The position numbers and the translations under genes are program-made. Of a stretch of DNA of 25,689 nt, positions 767 through 12,672 are shown one piece after another. The notes below the pieces were generated by a model, which saw nothing but the letters and a program-made list of their open reading frames with translations, had not been told where the DNA came from and searched no databases. Position 1 is the first letter of the stretch; each line of letters begins with the position of its first letter. Source of the stretch: a virus; IMG/VR virus record IMGVR_UViG_3300025890_000142, positions 1-25,689 of that record, one strand, 5' to 3'.

Positions 767-3700
767 ATGGCTTTTGTCTTAAAAGATCGTGTAAAAGAAA
801 GCACGACAACTACTGGTACAGGTGATTTAACTTTAGGTGGTTCTTCTGCTACGTTTGATGCATTTCAAACTTACATGTCAAATGGTGATACTACTTACTA
901 CAGCTTGTCACATACTGGTGCAGGAGTAGATGAATGGGAAGTAGGCATAGGTACTTGGAACACAGGTAATACTTTTAGTCGTACTACTATTTTAGCTGGG
1001 TCTAATAGTACATCTGCTGTCGATTTGTCAGCAGGTACTAAAGACATATTTATGACCTACCCTGCTGATAAAGCTATATTTAAAGATGCAAGTGGTAACT
1101 TAACTGTTAGTGGTAATCTTACAGTTGATGGTAGTACTACTACTATTAATTCAACTAACAAAGTTCTTACAGATAAACTAATAGAATTAGCAAGTGGTAC
1201 TAGCGGTTCAGCGTCAGGTGATGCTGGTATTGTTATAGAGCGTGGCAGTGATGCTAACGCTTTTATTGGTTTTGATGAAAGTGAAAACAAATTCAAACTA
1301 GGTACAGGTACTTTTACTGGTGCTTCTACTGGTGATCTTTCTATAACAACTGGTACTCTTATATCAAACCTTGAAGCAGACAGTGTTGTAGTTGGTGGAA
1401 CAGATGGCGTAACTTTAGGTCAAGGTTCTATATCTATAAAGAATGGTGGTTCACAGTCATATGTAGACTTTTACTGTGAAACAAGTAACGCACACTATGC
1501 AAGGCTTCAGGCTCCTGCCCATAGTGATTTTGGTGGTAATATTACTTTAACGCTACCTGCTACTACAGACACACTAGTTGGTAGAACAACTACAGATACT
1601 CTAACAAACAAAACACTAGCTGCTCCTGCAATGACAGGTACAACAACTTTTGGGGGTGCGTCAGGTGTTAGTATCGCTCAAGGTGCAATATCTATTAAGA
1701 ATGGTGGCACACAATCTTATGTAGATTTTTATTGTGAGTCTAGCAATGCACACTACGCTAGGTTACAGGCTCCAGCGCATAGTGCTTTTAGTGGTAACAT
1801 TACACTTACACTCCCTGCTACCACAGATACACTTGTAGCAAGAACAACTACAGATACACTTACTAATAAAACATTAACCGCACCTGTTATAACAAGTATT
1901 AGTAATAGTGGTACTATCACCCTTCCTACTGGAAATGATACATTAGTAGCTAGGGCTACAGTAGATACCCTAACAAATAAAACATTAACAACCCCTGCAA
2001 TAACAAGTCCTGCGATAACAGGCACTGCAACTTTTGGTGGAGCATCAGGTGTTAGTATTGCTCAGGGTGCTATATCTATAAAGAATGGTGGAACTCAATC
2101 ATACGTAGACTTCTACTGCGAATCAAGTAATGCTCATTACGCTAGACTACAAGCTCCAGCGCACTCAGCTTTTAGTGGTAATATTACTCTTACCCTCCCT
2201 GCTGCTACTGATACATTAGTAGGTAAAGCCACAACAGATACATTAACAAATAAAACTTTAACTTCCCCCACATTAACTTCCCCAGTTATAAACACTGGCG
2301 TAAGCGGTACAGCTATATTAGATGAAGATAATATGGCTAGTGACTCAGCTACAAAATTAGCTACACAACAGTCTATTAAAGCATACGTTGATGCAGAAGT
2401 CTCTGGTGTATCAGTTTCAACAGAGGCTGTTCAAGATATTGTTGGAGCTATGTTTAGTTCTAATACAGAGACAAATATAGCTGCTACTTATGAAGATGAT
2501 GATGGCACTATTGATCTTGTTGTTAACTCACTTCCTAATTCATCATTAGCAAATTCTTCTGTTTCTTTTGGTGGTATAAGTCTTGCATTAGGTGCTACTG
2601 ATGCTACTCCTGCTTTTGATTTGCAAGATGCTACTGGTTATCCTACCAGTTCACTTACAGGTACAATCACTAATGCCCAGCTTGCAGGATCTATAGCCAA
2701 CGCAAAACTAGCTAATAATTCTATAACTGTATCAGATGGTTCAAATTCTACTGCAACAGCTTTAGGGGGTACTATTACTTTTGCTGCTACTAGCAACGAA
2801 ACTACTGTAGCAGAAAGCTCAGGCACAGTAACTATTGGACTGCCCAGTGATGTAACTGTATCTAATGACCTTACCGTTTCAGGTAACCTAGTTGTTTCGG
2901 GTAGTACAACTCAAACAGGCGCTATTATAACAGACAACAACTTTACTGGTCTTACAAATGCCAACACAGGAAACGCTACAGACTTTGGTTTCTATGGAAA
3001 GTATGTAGAGTCTAGCACAACTAAGTATGCTGGTTTGTATTATGATGCATCAACAGATAACACTTTTAATTTATTCTGTGATACTCAAACTGTACCTTCC
3101 TCAACAATAAATACATCTGCTACAGGATATGCTGCTGCAAACTTGTCAATTAATAACTTAGTAGTAGGTGGAACTGTAGATGGGCGTGATGTAGCGGCTG
3201 ATGGAACTAAGCTTGATGGCATTGCAACTGGTGCAACTAATGTAACAAACACAAATCAGTTAACTAATGGCGCAGGGTTTATAACTTCGGCTGACGGTGG
3301 AAATGCAGCTACGCTAGATGGTATAGATAGTGCATCGTTTCTAAGAAGTGATACAGGTGATAGTTTTACTGGGAATACACTGAGTTATACAGGAAGTACT
3401 GATGAAAAGATAATTCTTTCTGGCTCAAGTAATCCTTACATAAGGTTTCGTGAAGGAAGTGATAACAAAGCATACATACAATGGCACTCTAGTAGCGGAA
3501 CCCTTTTTATAAGAAATACAGAGGATGGCTCTGGTATTAGAGTACATGACAGTCTTGAGTTCACTCCTGACGGAACAAACTTTTATAACATTTGGCACGC
3601 TAATAATGGTGGTTCGGGTTCAGGTTTAGATGCAGATACTTTAGATGGTGTGCAACCAAGTGCTTCCGCAGGTAATAGTACAATAGTTCAAAGACATTCT

Positions 3701-4726
3701 TCTGGCTATATCTATGCTAACTACTTCAATACAACACCTAATGATATTGCTACAGGTAGCATAACAAAAATTGTTGCTGAGAGTGGTAACGATGGTTTTA
3801 TGCGCCATGCAACTGCAGCCGCAGTAAGGTCATTTCTAAATGTTGAAGATGGCGCAACGGCTGGTGGTGGCGCAGCAGGTGCAGCATATCTTGACATAGC
3901 AACAGGCAACTACGGCACTGTTAAAGTAGACGATGATCGTGGTATTGGTTGGGCAGGGTATGCCATTCGTGATGATTGGGTGCTTATGTCGGATGGCCCA
4001 AGTAATTGTGGTATTTATAACGACACTGATAATGAATGGGGTGTGCTATGTAGGCGTAATGCTGAAGTAGAAATATGCCATAATGGGTCGGTCAAAATGG
4101 AAACAGCCAGTGACGGAATTACAGTCACAGGCAATGTTGACGTATCTGGTCAAGTTGAAATTGGCGGTGAGGTAATTTTAAAAGAAAGTTCTGATAGGGC
4201 AGACTTATTAGAAATAACATCTAGTACCTCTGGTTGGGCAGGAATACAAATCCGCAATAGCTCTGACGAAGGGCGTTGGTCTTTTATGACTGATGGTTCT
4301 TACTCAGGAATATATGACGATCAAAATAACGAGTGGTTGCAAAGGTGGAATGAAAACGGAAGTGTAAATATATATTATAATAACGTTGAAAAATTTGCAA
4401 CAAGTAGCACTGGTGTAACAATAACAGGCACAGCAAGTGCAACACAATTTACTGCTACATCAGACTTAGCTAAGAAAGAAAACTTAGAAGTTGTAGATAA
4501 TGCATTAAATAAGATTGACAAACTTACTGGTTACACGTATAATATGAAAGAAGATGGCTCTCGCAAAGCAGGGCTTATAGCGCAAGATGTAGAGAAAGTA
4601 TTACCCGAAGCGGTTGATGGTGAAGAAGGTGAAAAGACACTGGACTATAGTGCAACCATAGCCTTGTTAGTTAATGCCATCAAAGAGCAACAGAAACAAA
4701 TAGAAGAACTTAAGGCAAGGTTATGA
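767..4726 (+). CDS. Long tail fiber with C-terminal S74 intramolecular chaperone
   Basis: This 1319-residue fiber has four visible parts. Residues 1-105 form an N-terminal module (MAFVLKDRVKESTTT start, a TTYYSLSH segment, ending near MTYPADKAI) that probably anchors the fiber to the virion. A beta-rich shaft with SGNLTVDGSTT-type motifs follows. Three repeats lie at about residues 210-500, each with IKNGG.QSYVDFYCE and ending in TDTLTNKTL. The C-terminus from residue 1232 matches the S74 chaperone of endosialidase: SDLAKKENLE, then GYTYN, then AGLIAQDVEKVLPEAV, and a terminal coiled coil. In that family the fiber trimerises and the chaperone cleaves itself off before the Ser of the SD pair, so mature product would end near residue 1231. 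The stop overlaps the next start (ATGA), which indicates translational coupling. It probably binds the host surface; the receptor is unknown. Confidence 0.85.
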   Translation: MAFVLKDRVKESTTTTGTGDLTLGGSSATFDAFQTYMSNGDTTYYSLSHTGAGVDEWEVGIGTWNTGNTFSRTTILAGSNSTSAVDLSAGTKDIFMTYPADKAIFKDASGNLTVSGNLTVDGSTTTINSTNKVLTDKLIELASGTSGSASGDAGIVIERGSDANAFIGFDESENKFKLGTGTFTGASTGDLSITTGTLISNLEADSVVVGGTDGVTLGQGSISIKNGGSQSYVDFYCETSNAHYARLQAPAHSDFGGNITLTLPATTDTLVGRTTTDTLTNKTLAAPAMTGTTTFGGASGVSIAQGAISIKNGGTQSYVDFYCESSNAHYARLQAPAHSAFSGNITLTLPATTDTLVARTTTDTLTNKTLTAPVITSISNSGTITLPTGNDTLVARATVDTLTNKTLTTPAITSPAITGTATFGGASGVSIAQGAISIKNGGTQSYVDFYCESSNAHYARLQAPAHSAFSGNITLTLPAATDTLVGKATTDTLTNKTLTSPTLTSPVINTGVSGTAILDEDNMASDSATKLATQQSIKAYVDAEVSGVSVSTEAVQDIVGAMFSSNTETNIAATYEDDDGTIDLVVNSLPNSSLANSSVSFGGISLALGATDATPAFDLQDATGYPTSSLTGTITNAQLAGSIANAKLANNSITVSDGSNSTATALGGTITFAATSNETTVAESSGTVTIGLPSDVTVSNDLTVSGNLVVSGSTTQTGAIITDNNFTGLTNANTGNATDFGFYGKYVESSTTKYAGLYYDASTDNTFNLFCDTQTVPSSTINTSATGYAAANLSINNLVVGGTVDGRDVAADGTKLDGIATGATNVTNTNQLTNGAGFITSADGGNAATLDGIDSASFLRSDTGDSFTGNTLSYTGSTDEKIILSGSSNPYIRFREGSDNKAYIQWHSSSGTLFIRNTEDGSGIRVHDSLEFTPDGTNFYNIWHANNGGSGSGLDADTLDGVQPSASAGNSTIVQRHSSGYIYANYFNTTPNDIATGSITKIVAESGNDGFMRHATAAAVRSFLNVEDGATAGGGAAGAAYLDIATGNYGTVKVDDDRGIGWAGYAIRDDWVLMSDGPSNCGIYNDTDNEWGVLCRRNAEVEICHNGSVKMETASDGITVTGNVDVSGQVEIGGEVILKESSDRADLLEITSSTSGWAGIQIRNSSDEGRWSFMTDGSYSGIYDDQNNEWLQRWNENGSVNIYYNNVEKFATSSTGVTITGTASATQFTATSDLAKKENLEVVDNALNKIDKLTGYTYNMKEDGSRKAGLIAQDVEKVLPEAVDGEEGEKTLDYSATIALLVNAIKEQQKQIEELKARL
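1394..2260 (+). repeat. Three repeated fiber modules (IKNGG...LTNKTL)
   Basis: Module copies begin at 1394, 1652 and 2036. Each carries IKNGG(S/T)QSYVDFYCE, then NAHYARLQAPAHS, then NITLTLPA, and ends with DTLTNKTL. Copy 2 also has an extra LPTGNDTLVARATVDTLTNK half-module before copy 3. Copies 2 and 3 are identical over 56 consecutive residues (1652-1819 and 2036-2203), yet by my count 28 of those 56 codons differ. Copy 1 differs from copy 2 at about 10 of the same 56 residues. Confidence 0.9.
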
Positions 4727-5331
4727 GTATTGGTAGTTTAACTTTAGGTCCGTATGGATATTCTACTATAGATGAAGTTGTAACTTCAAGCTCAACAAGT
4801 TCAATTAATTTAGACTTAAATACAACTAGTATTACTTCACCTGATATTGGTGGATCAAGCACTTCAAGTAGTGCGGATTTAGTTTGTGTTGCTGGTGATT
4901 TAGCTTTTGATGGTAATAATAGGTATCTGTTTTTTCGATTTGCTAGTAGTGCTACAGGAGGTACTATAGCACAAGGAACGTATAGGACACGTGCACATTA
5001 TACAACTAGCACTTATAGTAGTAGCAATAATACATATGTAGACGCTGCTACCTATTATACTATTGGAAATATAAATTCTACTACATCAAAAAGTGGCGAA
5101 CGTCTATCGTTTCTTTGTTGGATAAAATATAATGCTGCTCATAGCCTTGGTAGACCTTGGGGAGATGTAACTATGTGGTATCAAACTTGTGGTAATAATC
5201 CATATCTAAACCTGACCCATGGCGTGTTTCAAACGTTTAATACGTCAGCATCAAGATTTTTAAGAATTTATCCAAACAGCGGTAGTTGGGCTGCATGTCG
5301 AGTAAAAGCCTGGCATATTGGCGCTAGTTAG
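4723..5331 (+). CDS. Small candidate adhesin / fiber-associated protein, paralog 1 of 3
   Basis: This 202-residue protein starts at ATG 4723, overlapping the fiber stop codon as ATGA, with AAGG at 4712-4715 as ribosome site. It is very rich in Ser, Thr, Tyr, Asn and Gly, with no signal peptide or membrane helix, as expected for a beta-structured virion surface protein. It shares a layout with the next two genes: a G.YG.S.ID opening (also in the second), a central PWGDVTMWYQT segment and a C-terminus of aromatic and basic residues ending KAWHIGAS. I recognise no named family. Coupling to the fiber suggests it assembles with or near it, perhaps as a tip or receptor-binding subunit. This is inference. 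Confidence 0.6.
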   Translation: MSIGSLTLGPYGYSTIDEVVTSSSTSSINLDLNTTSITSPDIGGSSTSSSADLVCVAGDLAFDGNNRYLFFRFASSATGGTIAQGTYRTRAHYTTSTYSSSNNTYVDAATYYTIGNINSTTSKSGERLSFLCWIKYNAAHSLGRPWGDVTMWYQTCGNNPYLNLTHGVFQTFNTSASRFLRIYPNSGSWAACRVKAWHIGAS

Positions 5332-5342
5332 TAAGGAAAAGC

Positions 5343-5885
5343 ATGGCAGTTACTTATGGAAAATATGGAATGTCGGTTATTGACAGTGGCTCAAACACTG
5401 GGAGTTATACTAATTTTACTATGGCTTGTGGGGATCAAAATTCTAACTACGATCTTGTTCAAGCAAATTTAAGATTTACTGGTGCAACTGAAGATCAATG
5501 GTTGTTTACCAAATTAAGAGCAGGTTTAACTTCTTATAAAAATGTTATATATAGAGCGCAAGGAGCAGGTACATCTAGTACTATGGGTAGTACAAATGGT
5601 TCCCTTTGGTCAACCTATGCAAAAAATAGAAGTAATGGAGACTACAGTTACGCACAATTTACAATTAAAAATATGCACTCAGACAGTAACCCTTTTGGCG
5701 ACACTACACTTTTTTGCAGATACCTAATAAGGATTAAACAATCTACTGTCCAAAATTGGAGAAATGATTACACTTTCGCAAGGGCAAGAGTAACAGGCTG
5801 TCCTGATAAAATAGAATGTTATTTTCAAAATGGAAATGTTACAGGTTATGAATATAAAGTTTATGGATTTGCGAGTTCAGATTAA
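5343..5885 (+). CDS. Small candidate adhesin / fiber-associated protein, paralog 2 of 3
   Basis: This 180-residue protein has a clear AAGGAA ribosome site at 5333-5338. The opening YGKYGMSVID echoes paralog 1 (GPYGYSTID), and NPFGDTTLFCRYLIRI lines up with PWGDVTMWYQT of paralog 1. The C-terminus YEYKVYGFASSD matches the basic-aromatic ending of both neighbours. It contains several Cys residues but no CxxC pairs. It has no signal peptide or membrane segment. The stop TAA overlaps the next start by one base (TAATG), so the next protein is probably made by reinitiation. The family is unknown to me. Its place among fiber genes and its composition suggest a virion surface role. Confidence 0.6.
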   Translation: MAVTYGKYGMSVIDSGSNTGSYTNFTMACGDQNSNYDLVQANLRFTGATEDQWLFTKLRAGLTSYKNVIYRAQGAGTSSTMGSTNGSLWSTYAKNRSNGDYSYAQFTIKNMHSDSNPFGDTTLFCRYLIRIKQSTVQNWRNDYTFARARVTGCPDKIECYFQNGNVTGYEYKVYGFASSD

Positions 5886-6478
5886 TGGGTACTGGTGTAT
5901 ATTTTAACTACGGACACGATGAAGCTTACAGTACTAATGTACCTAGTAGCCAAGGTGGTACTGGCTATGGAGTAAGTTCTGTTACAATAGACATAAACGA
6001 TAGTACCATGAGTGCAGGTTGGTCTATGGTAATGGTTACTTGCAGTACAAACCCAAATGGTGATGGTTCTAGCTCCATTGAACCTAGTACTTATTTTCAA
6101 ATATGGCCTAAAAATTCAAGTAACAGCTATATTAATGCAGACTATTGTTTGAGTGCAAATAGTACACATTCTATACTGACCAGTGGATCTTCTTCAGATC
6201 AAAATGCAAGGATATCTTATTGGACATCAATAGGTCATGCTGCCGCAGCAATTGCCGCTGGTGGTGAACGACATCAAATGCTTTTAAGTTGCAGCCATTT
6301 GAGTGACGGTACTCATATTAGTTGTCATGTTATGACTTGTCAAAATAATGGCAGCCGAAATTACCACACAACAGAAATTATAACAGCCTCTCCTGCTAGA
6401 TATTTAAATTTTAGAGGTACCAGCAATTGGTTCTATCAGTGGAGATCAAAGACTTATTTTTTAGGAGCAAGTCCATAA
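5885..6478 (+). CDS. Small candidate adhesin / fiber-associated protein, paralog 3 of 3
   Basis: This 197-residue protein starts at ATG 5885 in a TAATG overlap with the previous gene. It is Ser-, Asn- and His-rich. The C-terminal half has the same plan as its two neighbours: a Cys-containing strand (HISCHVMTCQNN), an RYLNFRG segment that matches RFLRIYP of paralog 1, and an ending WRSKTYFLGASP that matches KAWHIGAS. The N-terminus is diverged and longer. It ends in another TAATG overlap with the assembly-chaperone-like gene. I infer that it arose from an old tandem duplication and acts in adsorption. An alternative is that the three only share composition and fold, without common descent. Confidence 0.6.
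   Translation: MGTGVYFNYGHDEAYSTNVPSSQGGTGYGVSSVTIDINDSTMSAGWSMVMVTCSTNPNGDGSSSIEPSTYFQIWPKNSSNSYINADYCLSANSTHSILTSGSSSDQNARISYWTSIGHAAAAIAAGGERHQMLLSCSHLSDGTHISCHVMTCQNNGSRNYHTTEIITASPARYLNFRGTSNWFYQWRSKTYFLGASP
6463..6467 (+). promoter_or_regulatory. Ribosome site fixing the start at 6478
   Basis: AGGAG sits 10 bases before ATG 6478, which overlaps the previous stop as TAATG. This favours 6478 over the in-frame ATG at 6427, which would lie inside the previous gene. Confidence 0.75.
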
Positions 6479-6804
6479 TGGGAAGTTACAGTTTTTTAAG
6501 AAAAAGAGAAGATGGCGACTTTGACCATGTTGAAGTAAATGAAACAGAAGGAACTGAAACAGTTTTTGCTAAAGTTCTAGCGGCTGATGAGCAGTTTCCT
6601 TGGGGCAGACCCACCGATGAAGAAACCGCAGAAGAACATAGAAATATGAGAAACGAATTACTTGTGCAAACAGATGTATGGGCTTTGTCTGATAGAACTC
6701 CTACACAGGCGCAAAAAGATTATAGACAAGCTTTGAGAGAACTACCAACTCACTCTAACTGGCCTAATTTAAATAATGAAGATTGGCCTGTTAAACCTTC
6801 ATAA
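6478..6804 (+). CDS. Tail fiber assembly chaperone-like protein
   Basis: This protein has 108 residues from the preferred ATG 6478; an upstream in-frame ATG at 6427 would add 17 residues that overlap the previous gene. The C-terminal half has the pattern R-N-x-LL-x-x-TD-x-W near residues 59-71, then D-R-T-P, then Q-x-x-YRQALRELP, and a closing W-P-V-K-P. This is the signature of phage tail assembly chaperones (Phage_tail_APC-like and related tail fiber assembly proteins), which help fold or attach fibers and are normally encoded just after the fiber gene. The position after the fiber and the three small candidate adhesins agrees. Its client is probably one of those proteins. The N-terminal 45 residues are acidic and I do not recognise them. 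Confidence 0.7.
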   Translation: MGSYSFLRKREDGDFDHVEVNETEGTETVFAKVLAADEQFPWGRPTDEETAEEHRNMRNELLVQTDVWALSDRTPTQAQKDYRQALRELPTHSNWPNLNNEDWPVKPS

Positions 6805-6817
6805 GAAAGTAAAGTAA

Positions 6818-7969
6818 ATGTTAGGCTTTAGTGCTTTTTCTGGCGCACCACTGGGTTCTTCTGGAGGCGTTTCTGCCACAATTACTGTAGCCTCTCAGGT
6901 AATAAATCAAGTAGTAAATACTTTAACTACTCAAGCTAAAGCAAATATTACAAATCCTTCTGCTACTTCTACGTTTAGTTTAGGTATAGGGTTTGATGCT
7001 CAGGCAAACATTACGCCAAGCACTGCTGTTTCTGTATCTACTGCAGGTACGGTAGGGTTTGATGCCAAAGCAAATTTAACAACCAGTGCTGTTGCTTCTG
7101 TTACTGCTGCAGGTACGATAGGGTTTGATGCAGCAGCGAATATAACACCAAGCGCAGCCACAGCCACCTTTGGTTTAGGCATAGGCTTTGATGCCCAGGC
7201 TAATACCACTTTAAGTTCTGCTTCTGTTGTTTCTGCTGCAGGTATAGCAGGTTTTGACGCACAAGCAAGTGTAATTACAGGTTCTGCTTCTGCTACATTT
7301 GGTTTGGATATTGAGTTTGACGCTAAAGCCAATATTACTTCAAGTGCAGTTACTTCAACAATAACATCAGGTACAGCAGGGTTTGACGCTCAGGCAAATA
7401 TTACTCCAAGTTCTACTGTAGCAAACTCTGTCGGTGGTACACTAGGGTTTGATGCTGATGCAAACATTACTTCAAGTGCAGCTACAGCTACAGTCTCAGC
7501 AGGTACAGCAGGGTTTGACGCTAAAGCTAATACTAATTTAGATACAACATCTTCTTCTATTTCTACATCAACGCTTGACTTTGACGCAAAAGCGAATATA
7601 ACTACAAGCAGTATTAATATTTCAACTACCCTTGTTGATATAACAACATTCTTACGAATAAATACAACAGTAGAATTAAGTAGCTTACTAGGTTTATTTA
7701 GTATAAACTTAGACCCACCTGCTAATAATCTTTTTGACTATGATGCACATGCAGATGATTACAATAGAACAAGGACTGTATACATACTTCCTGAAGGGGG
7801 TTACGGTCTAAGTAAAACAGTACATTTACCACAGCAAGATAATAATACTATATCTCTAATAAACTATTCTTTAGGTCTAGGTAATGTTGTACACATAAAC
7901 CCAGAAAATTTTACATTAACTGTAGATAAACACAGAGCTTTACCTACTACTGTATTAATAACACGATAA
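6818..7969 (+). CDS. FDAxAN-repeat virion protein
   Basis: This 383-residue protein has three parts. The N-terminus (MLGFSAFSGAPLGSSGG) resembles the short leader of repeat proteins seen in marine phages. Residues about 58-265 hold ten repeats of 21-22 residues, each starting with (G)FDA.AN and followed by a Ser/Thr/Ala/Val strand. The C-terminal 120 residues are not repetitive, contain NNLFDYDAHADDYNRTR and TVYILPEGGYGLSKTVHL, and look like a folded domain. There is no signal peptide. Repeats of this type usually make an elongated beta structure, and the position among fiber genes suggests a spike or fiber spacer. The ribosome site is weak (AAGAAAGTAAAG just upstream), so expression may depend on coupling to the previous gene. 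Function is unknown. Confidence 0.6.
   Translation: MLGFSAFSGAPLGSSGGVSATITVASQVINQVVNTLTTQAKANITNPSATSTFSLGIGFDAQANITPSTAVSVSTAGTVGFDAKANLTTSAVASVTAAGTIGFDAAANITPSAATATFGLGIGFDAQANTTLSSASVVSAAGIAGFDAQASVITGSASATFGLDIEFDAKANITSSAVTSTITSGTAGFDAQANITPSSTVANSVGGTLGFDADANITSSAATATVSAGTAGFDAKANTNLDTTSSSISTSTLDFDAKANITTSSINISTTLVDITTFLRINTTVELSSLLGLFSINLDPPANNLFDYDAHADDYNRTRTVYILPEGGYGLSKTVHLPQQDNNTISLINYSLGLGNVVHINPENFTLTVDKHRALPTTVLITR
6989..7612 (+). repeat. Ten tandem FDAxAN repeats (period 21-22 residues)
   Basis: FDA(Q/K/A/D)A(N/S) occurs ten times with spacing close to 63-66 bases, from 6991 to about 7600. Codons vary between copies (for example GATGCT, GACGCT, GATGCC), so the DNA repeats are less exact than the protein repeats. 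Confidence 0.85.
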
Positions 7970-7978
7970 GGACAAGCA

Positions 7979-8296
7979 ATGTCTTATAGATGGCCTGATA
8001 AAGACCCTGATGAAACGGTAGACTATAGCGTAGATTGGTCACGCTTTATACCTAATGACACACTTTCTGCAAACACTTGGTTTATTCAAGATGCTGCTGG
8101 TGCTAAAGAAGCAGTCTCTAATGCTGAAGTAGTAGATGGGCTACAGTTTGTACAGTCTACTATATCAGGTAAAACTGCTACGGCTCGTTTTGCTTTAGGT
8201 ACAAACAACAAACAATATAAGGTTACCTGTCAAATAACTACAGGTGACGGTCTTGTTTTTGAACGAGCAATCTTTCTAAAGATAAAAGAGAAGTAA
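7979..8296 (+). CDS. Small conserved phage protein, probable tail/fiber adaptor
   Basis: This 105-residue protein has AAGGA at 7968-7972, overlapping the previous stop. The opening MSYRWPDKDPDETVDYSVDW is a recognisable pattern in small phage proteins with a K-D-P-D-E...DY..DW signature, followed by an immunoglobulin-like beta domain ending YKVTCQITTGDG and ERAIFLKIK. Relatives are annotated in some phages as a fiber-tail adaptor or head-tail structural protein. Its location immediately before tail tubular A fits a part at the head-tail or fiber-tail junction. The adaptor role is inferred from memory of the family pattern and from neighbourhood. Confidence 0.6.
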   Translation: MSYRWPDKDPDETVDYSVDWSRFIPNDTLSANTWFIQDAAGAKEAVSNAEVVDGLQFVQSTISGKTATARFALGTNNKQYKVTCQITTGDGLVFERAIFLKIKEK

Positions 8297-10797: not shown

Positions 10798-12672
10798 ATG
10801 GCAGGATATACACGTCAAGCGACAGCTAACATAGTTACAGGTGCAGTTATTGATGCTGCAGACTTTAACTCAGAATATAATGCTATTGAAGCAGCATTTA
10901 ATGCAACAACAGGGCATACACACGATGGTAGTACGGGAAATGGACCACCCATTGAAAACTTAGGTCCCTCCCAGGATTTAGTAGTTACATCTAGTGTTGT
11001 ACGTGCTAAGACAGACAACACCTACGACTTAGGTACGTCCTCTATTGAATGGAAAGATGGCTTCTTTGATGGAACACTAAGAACAGATATACTTACTGTA
11101 GATGAAACTTCTACTTTAACAGGAAACGTAACAGCTTCTGCAGATGTCTCTGTTGGTGGCAACCTTACAGTCACAGGTAATGCTACAATAAATGGTAACT
11201 TAACATTTGGTGATGCTGATACAGATAGTGTTGCTTTTGGTGCAGACATTACTAGTAGCTTAATACCAGATGGATCAACTCAGGATTTAGGTAGTAGCAC
11301 AAAGCAGTGGCGTAATCTTTACATAGATGGAACAGCTAACATAGATGCTCTTGTAGCTGATACTGCTGACATAAATGGTGGTAGTATTGATGGTACTATA
11401 ATAGGTGCTAATGCTACTGCTGCTATTACAGGTACAACAATTACAGGTACTAGTCTTGTTGGTCCTCTTACAGGTAACGCATCGGGGTCTGCTGGCTCTT
11501 GTACTGGTAATTCAGCTACAGCGACAAAACTAGCAACAACACGTGCTATAGCGTTAAGTGGTGCAGTCACTGGTACTGCAAACTTTGACGGTAGTGCTGG
11601 TATTACAATATCAACCACTGCAGCATCTGATCCTAGTCTTACTTTGCAGGGAGATGTCACTGGCTCTGCAACATTTACTAACCTTGGCAATGCCACTCTA
11701 ACTGCATCACTAGCCGCAAACTCTGTAGGAACTAGTGAGATAGCTACCAACGGTGTAGGAACTACTGAAATAGCAGCAGACGCAGTTACTTCAGCTAAGA
11801 TTGCAGCAGGTGCTGTAGACAGTACAGCACTTGCAACTGATGCAGTAACTACAGCTAAGATAGCTGACAATGCAATAACTGCAGCTTTGATAGCAGCTAA
11901 TGCTGTAGGAGCTAGTGAAATAGCAGCTAACGCTGTGGGATCAAGTGAAATTGCTACCAATGCTGTTGGTTCTGATGAAATAGCAGCTAACGCTGTAGGG
12001 GCAAGTGAAATTGCTGCATCTGCTGTAGGGGCAAGTGAGCTTAATGTTAGTGGTAATGGTACTACTTCTGAGTTCTTACGTTCAGATGGGGATGGTACAT
12101 TTACATGGGCTACTCCTGCTGGACAAACTCTTACTGGGGGTACTTCTATTTCTATAAGTGGGTCAGCAATTAATTTAGATGCAGACTCAAGGTTTGGTAA
12201 TGCTGTTGATGTTAAAGTTGGTAATGATCACGAATACATTAGGTTTAATCCATCTTCAAATGGTCAAATAAATTTTCATAATAATAACGGTACTGAAAAT
12301 ATGAGATTGTTTGGTGGTGGAGGCCTACAAGTTAAGGATAATATTACTGCATTCTCCACAACAGTTTCAGACCAACGTTTAAAGCATGATATTGAAAAAA
12401 TAGAAGGTGCTTTGGATAAAGTAACAAAACTAAGTGGTTATACATTTAGCTATAATAAAGATAGTAAAAAGTCTGCTGGTGTATTAGCACAAGAAGTAGA
12501 GAAAGTACTACCATCTGCTGTAGAAAATAAGTCACTAGTATTTCATGGTGAAGAGAATGTTGAATATAAAACAGTACAGTATGACCAGCTTCATGGATTA
12601 CTAATAGAAGCTATCAAAGAACTAAAAGAAAAACTAGATGAATGTAAGTGTAAAAAGTGTGAGTGTGAGTAA
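10798..12672 (+). CDS. Second tail fiber with S74 chaperone and Cys-rich tail
   Basis: This 624-residue fiber starts with an N-terminal module (MAGYTRQATANIVTGAVIDA, then HTHDGSTGNGPP) typical of phage fibers. A shaft follows with VGGNLTVTGNATINGNLTFG, two DLG(T/S)S...W(K/R) motifs and LVGPLTGNASGSAGSCTGN. Eleven decapeptide repeats lie at residues 308-417. An S74 chaperone begins at Ser524 (SDQRLKHDIEKIEGALDKV), with GYTFSY and AGVLAQEVEKVLPSAV. The C-terminus is a coiled coil that ends with Cys616, Cys618, Cys621 and Cys623 among charged residues. By family precedent the chaperone would be released by cleavage before Ser524. It follows the nozzle gene and overlaps the next gene (TAATG). It is one of two S74 fibers in the window, and the N-terminus differs from that of the first, so the two probably attach at different sites. 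Confidence 0.85.
   Translation: MAGYTRQATANIVTGAVIDAADFNSEYNAIEAAFNATTGHTHDGSTGNGPPIENLGPSQDLVVTSSVVRAKTDNTYDLGTSSIEWKDGFFDGTLRTDILTVDETSTLTGNVTASADVSVGGNLTVTGNATINGNLTFGDADTDSVAFGADITSSLIPDGSTQDLGSSTKQWRNLYIDGTANIDALVADTADINGGSIDGTIIGANATAAITGTTITGTSLVGPLTGNASGSAGSCTGNSATATKLATTRAIALSGAVTGTANFDGSAGITISTTAASDPSLTLQGDVTGSATFTNLGNATLTASLAANSVGTSEIATNGVGTTEIAADAVTSAKIAAGAVDSTALATDAVTTAKIADNAITAALIAANAVGASEIAANAVGSSEIATNAVGSDEIAANAVGASEIAASAVGASELNVSGNGTTSEFLRSDGDGTFTWATPAGQTLTGGTSISISGSAINLDADSRFGNAVDVKVGNDHEYIRFNPSSNGQINFHNNNGTENMRLFGGGGLQVKDNITAFSTTVSDQRLKHDIEKIEGALDKVTKLSGYTFSYNKDSKKSAGVLAQEVEKVLPSAVENKSLVFHGEENVEYKTVQYDQLHGLLIEAIKELKEKLDECKCKKCECE
11719..12048 (+). repeat. Eleven in-frame 30-base repeats (NAVGxSEIAA type)
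   Basis: Eleven consecutive ten-residue units run without a single insertion or deletion. Examples are NAVGASEIAA, NAVGSSEIAT, DAVTTAKIAD and NAITAALIAA. The last units are most alike. A strict 10-residue period suggests a repeating trimeric shaft with a fixed rise per unit. Confidence 0.95.

What the first reader, a model, noticed from the sequence alone, without database searches (positions are those of the whole stretch)
4723..6478. Three consecutive small paralog-like proteins after the main fiber
Genes at 4723, 5343 and 5885 encode 180-202 residue Ser/Tyr/Asn-rich proteins with a common plan: a YG.S.ID opening in the first two, a P(W/F)GD.T segment in the first two, and a basic-aromatic ending (KAWHIGAS, KVYGFASSD, KTYFLGASP) in all three. 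They are translationally linked to the fiber and to a fiber-assembly-chaperone-like gene. Tandem, fast-diverging adhesins would be a way to vary receptor binding.
Basis: partly seen in the sequence, partly recalled or inferred. Interest (0 to 1): 0.6.

Follow-up and report, generated by a model that had tools for sequence, protein, structure and literature searches.

The report
Three tandem phage fibre-tip paralogs
A marine bacterial virus carries, right behind its main fibre gene, three distantly related copies of a small protein that probably forms the host-gripping tip, and similar tandem sets recur in other marine viruses, including cultured ones that infect the abundant ocean bacterium SAR11.

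Summary
P1 (4723-5331), P2 (5343-5885) and P3 (5885-6478) are real paralogs: a profile built without any window protein finds them at E 1.4e-30, 1e-17 and 2.6e-7, although P2 and P3 show no direct similarity. Nine distinct viruses carry the family in one to three copies, the last directly upstream of a Phage_tail_APC chaperone gene. The genes are 20-35% identical between the window and a relative whose neighbouring tail genes are 70-84% identical. A virus with a different gene order shares both flanks at 85% DNA identity, but nothing between. P1 and P3 give beta-sandwich models with matching strand order; the nearest solved folds are lectin-like, with only middling scores. Profiles link the family to domains fused to other marine fibres and, more weakly, to three-gene sets in cultured pelagiphages. 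Best reading: separately encoded, fast-diverging fibre-tip adhesins. Receptor binding and presence in virions are inferred, not shown. A hetero-oligomeric three-part tip is possible but untested.

The parts
767..4726 (+). Main fibre, 1319 aa, ending in a Peptidase_S74 intramolecular chaperone domain (residues 1232-1283)
   Evidence: ORF; PF13884 52.9 bits; PHROG tail fibre families
4399..4713 (+). Conserved upstream border: fibre S74 end, 85% DNA identity with L089, which has a different gene order
   Evidence: blastn and blastp
4723..5331 (+). P1, tip-domain paralog 1, 202 aa
   Evidence: Held-out profile E 1.4e-30; beta-sandwich model pLDDT 77; start overlaps fibre stop as ATGA
5343..5885 (+). 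P2, tip-domain paralog 2, 180 aa
   Evidence: Held-out profile E 1e-17; not folded; AAGGA before the ATG
5885..6478 (+). P3, tip-domain paralog 3, 197 aa
   Evidence: Held-out profile E 2.6e-7; model pLDDT 71 with the strand order of P1; TAATG overlap with P2
6478..6804 (+). Phage_tail_APC chaperone, 108 aa, with N-terminal DGDFD motif; conserved downstream border (6478-6789, 85% DNA identity with L089)
   Evidence: PF16778 39.2 bits; motif pairing; blastn

Best explanation
P1, P2 and P3 are tandem paralogs of a small beta-sandwich fibre-tip domain, made as separate proteins. Shown: common ancestry; a place between an S74 fibre and an APC chaperone; much faster divergence than the flanks; a related domain fused to the C-terminus of other marine phage fibres. 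Inferred: after the S74 domain has helped the fibre trimerise (and is probably cleaved off), the small proteins, folded with the help of the APC chaperone, cap the distal end of the fibre and bind the host surface, probably glycan. The operon couples their translation to fibre and chaperone. Duplication and divergence, with most change in two segments of the domain, and exchange of the module between phages across the conserved fibre end and chaperone, would let the phage change its specificity.
For: Held-out profiles; the last copy sits directly before the chaperone in all nine viruses; slot identities 20-35% against 70-84% for neighbouring tail genes and 76% for the chaperone; conserved 85% DNA borders in a virus with another gene order; profile-profile Prob 94.8 over 156 columns to domains next to the chaperone in other phages, two of them at the end of fibre-like proteins, column-shuffled controls at most 0.3; chaperone N-terminal motif present in 9 of 9 chaperones with the family and 0 of 60 without; changes clustered in two segments in close pairs; BFVD matches to ends of proteins named tail fibre; lectin-like sandwiches as nearest solved folds for both models.
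Against: No experiment shows the proteins in virions or any binding. Structure scores against solved folds are middling (Z up to 8.4 and 7.1) and Foldseek gives none under 1e-3. The window three alone do not match the fused domains (Prob 0.7), and the fused L099 domain is recovered only at 3.5e-4 when left out. The P1/L022 pair shows no clustering of change (715 of 2000). The chaperone motif was written after seeing the sequences, and its rows share descent.
Confidence: 0.72

Rival explanations
1. The three paralogs are obligate, non-interchangeable subunits of one hetero-oligomeric (for instance heterotrimeric) tip on the trimeric fibre, so three copies are a structural need and not a repertoire of alternatives.
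For: In L022, L089 and L093 the first, second and third genes group by position with 97/95, 98/92 and 99/96 support; four of the nine viruses have exactly three copies and three cultured pelagiphages also have three.
Against: L095 and L098 have one copy and L096 a recent pair; the window's own three are not placed in the slots with support; in the pelagiphages only the first position is supported. No complex was predicted.
Confidence: 0.18
2. The proteins are further folding or assembly helpers of the fibre, not part of the virion.
For: They sit between two chaperone elements, the S74 domain and the APC gene.
Against: Both chaperone elements stay conserved (chaperone 64-84%) while these fall to 20-41%; helpers of a conserved fibre end would be expected to stay conserved. 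A related domain is fused to fibre-like proteins elsewhere.
Confidence: 0.06
3. The proteins act in the infected cell or on its surface, for instance in superinfection exclusion, and are only neighbours of the fibre.
For: The fibre-to-repeat-gene locus of HMO-2011-type relatives also holds genes that need not be tail parts, for instance a possible oxygenase in L047 and L076, named from memory and not tested.
Against: Overlapping start and stop codons with fibre and chaperone, chaperone pairing, fused relatives.
Confidence: 0.04

Closest known systems
Three tandem ~205 aa hypothetical proteins of pelagiphages HTVC010P, HTVC019P and HTVC034P
   Same: Three consecutive paralogs of like length with variation clustered in two segments; profile-profile Prob 73.9 over 165 columns
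   Different: 44-65% identical to each other, not next to an APC gene in the annotated stretches, function unannotated
phrog_14820, a C-terminal domain of marine phage proteins (L115, L151)
   Same: Profile-profile match over nearly the whole domain; same place before an APC gene
   Different: P1-P3 do not match phrog_14820 by hmmscan; in L115 the domain is part of the fibre polypeptide
T-even gp38 tip adhesins
   Same: Separate tip protein encoded directly after the long fibre (gp38 layout recalled; PMC12892980 seen as a listing with the start of its abstract)
   Different: No glycine enrichment (8.9-9.4% Gly against 8.8% overall), beta-sandwich model, three copies, and a separate chaperone gene
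Fibre plus chaperone pairs of Pam3 and Alteromonas phage V22
   Same: Host-binding fibre with a chaperone gene encoded directly downstream; in Pam3 the chaperone has a conserved C-terminal and a variable client-binding N-terminal part (PMC9608196 and PMC7289586, passages read)
   Different: A single receptor-binding fibre gene with no tandem tip proteins described in the passages read; the window's chaperone has no sequence match among solved structures

Membership tests
One protein family for P1-P3 | Each found by a profile built without it, better than unrelated ORFs | tested here: met
   1.4e-30, 1e-17, 2.6e-7 with all window proteins left out
phrog_14820 | hmmscan match of P1-P3 to the family | tested here: not met
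   P1 and P3 no family at E 10, P2 only phrog_32109 at 0.23; so related to it, not filed in it
HMO-2011-type podophages (the genome) | Tail tubular protein and synteny shared with HMO-2011 and CRP phages | tested here: met
   66% to CRP-207, 40% to HMO-2011; gene order
PF16778 Phage_tail_APC (6478-6804) | Score above the curated cut-off | tested here: met
   39.2 against 26.6 bits
Concanavalin A-like lectins and galectins | Same beta-sandwich fold | tested here: inconclusive
   Z up to 8.4 (P1) and 7.1 (P3), middling; no Foldseek hit under 1e-3
Concanavalin A-like lectins and galectins | Carbohydrate binding | not testable with these tools
   Needs a binding assay
T-even gp38 adhesins | Gene directly downstream of the long fibre gene | tested here: met
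   the defining layout is recalled
T-even gp38 adhesins | Polyglycine-rich tip domain (recalled) | tested here: not met
   Gly 8.9-9.4% against 8.8% overall
Fibre-tip adhesins in general | Present at the fibre end of virions and binds the host | not testable with these tools
   Needs virion proteomics, cryo-EM and a binding assay

The most novel reading that the evidence does not exclude
Marine phages of several lineages have turned a homotrimeric fibre-tip domain into a separately encoded, three-gene tip kit whose slot-specific paralogs assemble as one hetero-oligomeric cap on an S74-matured fibre; the kit travels between phages with different gene orders as a cassette bordered by the conserved fibre end and its matched chaperone.
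Probability: 0.18. Interest if true: 0.78.

Novelty: new variant of a known kind. Interest (0 to 1): 0.55.

Why it matters
HMO-2011-type phages and pelagiphages are described as among the most abundant in the ocean (PMC9038755 and PMC3861242, passages), and how they recognise hosts is largely open. A separately encoded tandem set of tip domains with a matched chaperone would be a defined, movable unit behind some of the hypervariable islands seen in such genomes (PMC3909814, section 11 and passages; PMC10504331, passages), and the cultured HTVC phages make the idea directly testable.

Tried and rejected
Direct searches found no cultured phage relative: P2 none at E 1, P1 one chance hit at E 7; L022c, L071b and the L099 domain none. 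P3 was not run against the phage collection. Pattern scans of IMG/VR found only the same virus for P2 and P3 and none for P1; later slot-based scans brought only viruses already held. A PDB profile search gave one hit at E 0.95, taken as chance. HMO-2011's own tandem small genes were considered as members: 14 genes tested, best E 0.11, not supported; five of them form another paralog family. The idea that P2 and P3 are the slot-2 and slot-3 orthologs was dropped, because the tree does not place them. Recombination as the cause of the conserved borders was not separated from strong constraint on them. Positive selection was not measured. The one genome-contig scan, two VIA jobs and two searches of annotated records were left unused. 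Passages were read from six papers (PMC9038755, PMC3909814 with its section 11, PMC7289586, PMC9608196, PMC10504331, PMC3861242); others were seen only as search listings. Searches for tandem or paralogous marine tip proteins listed one, none and none; the one (PMC12028318, large vibrio phages) was seen as a listing only. These searches are narrow.
Full report
WHAT IS THERE. The window is a 25,689-base virus record of an HMO-2011-type podophage. Its tail tubular protein is 66% identical to roseophage CRP-207 and 40% to HMO-2011. The gene order is S74 fibre (767-4726), P1 (4723-5331), P2 (5343-5885), P3 (5885-6478), APC chaperone (6478-6804), a repeat protein (6818-7969), Gp77 adaptor (7979-8296), then tail proteins. 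The junctions are ATGA, an 11-base gap with a ribosome-binding-like AAGGA, TAATG and TAATG.

ARE THEY PARALOGS? By pairwise alignment P1-P2 is z 5.1, P1-P3 z 3.5 and P2-P3 z 0.1. BLASTP gives E 0.007, 0.91 and 0.51. Relatives settle it. Among 80 loci fetched with the tail tubular protein, L022 has three such genes and L071 at least two, before the same chaperone. Leave-one-out profiles of 8 members recover P1, P2 and P3 at 3.3e-21, 2.6e-7 and 1.1e-5, with the best unrelated ORF at 0.3-1.2; with all three window proteins out of these 8, P2 fell to 0.015 and P3 to 4.1e-4. After 80 loci were fetched with the chaperone, 77 of them new, an iterated profile collected 34 of 4,122 ORFs. A 23-member set without window proteins gives 1.4e-30, 1e-17 and 2.6e-7. 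In that set 21 of 23 members are recovered under E 0.02 when left out. The two that fail are L094:420-1121 (0.85) and L094:3-407 (52); the weakest recovered are L106 (0.015) and the fused L099 (3.5e-4).

WHERE ELSE. Distinct viruses with the free-standing form: window/L001, L022/L023/L088, L071, L089/L090/L091, L093, L094, L095, L096/L097 and L098, that is nine. Copies: three in the window, L022, L089 and L093; two in L096; at least two in L071 and at least one in L094, whose contigs begin inside the region; one in L095 and L098. In the tree the first, second and third genes of L022, L089 and L093 group by position (97/95, 98/92, 99/96). The two L096 genes are a recent pair (100/100; 52% identical). 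The window's three are not placed with support and have long branches.

CONSERVED FLANKS, VARIABLE MIDDLE. Window against L022: P genes 35, 20 and 29%; chaperone 76%, Gp77 84%, tail proteins 78 and 70%. The repeat protein (47%) and second fibre (50%) also diverge. Across five other pairs of viruses compared, slots are 21-41% and chaperones 64-84%. L089 and L090 show no match to Gp77 or either tail protein in the stretch held. Yet window 4399-4713 and 6478-6789 are 85% identical to them at DNA level, with no DNA match in between. L093 and L095 behave similarly. The stretches are partial contigs, so 'different gene order' is said only of what is held. In closer pairs the change is clustered: L095/L098 identity falls from about 0.75 to 0.3 and 0.15 in two segments (1 of 2000 permutations reaches it), the L096 pair 12 of 2000, three pelagiphage pairs 0-2 of 2000. 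The L095/L098 chaperone (1133 of 2000) and the P1/L022 pair (715 of 2000) show no clustering.

CHAPERONE PAIRING. Among 107 chaperone ORFs, 94 have an upstream ORF of 90 aa or more and 13 do not. Of the 94, 14 carry both the family and the motif [RKA].DG[DT][FY]D in the chaperone's N-terminal part, and 80 carry neither. Without redundant rows this is 9 of 9 against 0 of 60; among loci fetched with the tail protein it is 3 of 3 against 0 of 9. The motif was written after seeing the sequences, one pattern contains it, and shared descent of the module makes the rows not independent. In Pam3 the chaperone's variable N-terminal domain binds the fibre and its conserved C-terminal domain trimerises (PMC9608196, passages). 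That the window's chaperone works alike is inference; no solved relative was found by sequence.

FUSED AND TANDEM RELATIVES. L099, L106, L115, L151 and L154 have a related domain directly before an APC gene, in L099 and L115 at the end of a fibre-like protein. L115 and L151 match phrog_14820 (7e-13, 4.4e-7). Profile comparison of the free-standing family with L115/L151/L154/L140 gives Prob 94.8 over 156 columns, and with nine pelagiphage proteins Prob 73.9 over 165; 20 column shuffles of each reach at most 0.3 and 0.7. The window three alone give 0.7 and 4.6. HTVC010P, HTVC019P and HTVC034P each hold three consecutive ~205 aa paralogs annotated as hypothetical. In the phage collection only these three phages (five records) and a partial match in EXVC029P are found with HTVC010P's second protein. 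Their nine members group by position with support only for the first position (100/98).

FOLD. P1: mean pLDDT 77, pTM 0.77, 11 strands. P3: 71 and 0.72, 11 strands in the same order. Both rest on the same 20 sequences. PDB Foldseek: nothing under 1e-3 for either. VIA: GH32 C-terminal sandwiches, galectins and legume lectins for both, Z up to 8.4 and 7.1, which is middling. BFVD for P1: 80 hits under 1e-3, best 1.4e-9, both ~170-215 aa proteins and longer ones, some named tail fibre.

HOW IT LIKELY WORKS. The fibre trimerises with its S74 domain. The small sandwich proteins, folded with the APC chaperone, attach to the fibre's end and bind the cell surface. A related domain fused elsewhere to fibre stalks, the gene position and the chaperone pairing argue for the tip; clustered variation argues for a binding face. 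Attachment, stoichiometry and ligand are inferred. Whether the three form one mixed cap or serve as alternatives is open.

KNOWN OR NEW. Variable lectin-like and tail fibre genes in marine phage islands are known (PMC3909814, section 11 read). Skadi-1 has a hypervariable region with a lectin-domain gene (PMC10504331, passages). The HMO-2011-type paper does not contain 'tail fiber', 'receptor', 'hypervariable' or 'tandem' in its main text (PMC9038755, term search). The tandem free-standing family with its matched chaperone and conserved borders is a new variant; no paper on it was found, which were narrow searches of an open-licence library.

Noticed in passing
window 6818-7969: Protein of imperfect repeats (..FDAKANIT..) between chaperone and Gp77 adaptor, also in relatives, of very different length; only 47% identical to L022.
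   Followed up: no
L055, L009, L011, L047, L060, L076, between fibre and repeat gene: The same locus in other HMO-2011-type contigs holds unrelated occupants: nothing, an 80 aa gene, a 136+147 aa pair, a possible oxygenase (named from memory), or Gly-rich proteins.
   Followed up: partly
L084 13861-18676 (HMO-2011): Five paralogous small genes of about 125-133 aa, four of them ending in GDLA, interleaved with APC-like genes and a C1q gene: another tandem tail family.
   Followed up: partly
L166 3328-5163, L167 3881-5839, L168 3920-5749: Three consecutive ~205 aa paralogs in each of three cultured pelagiphages, all annotated hypothetical.
   Followed up: yes
window 10798-12672: A second fibre-like protein with its own Peptidase_S74 domain (58.3 bits), so the phage has two S74 fibres.
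   Followed up: no
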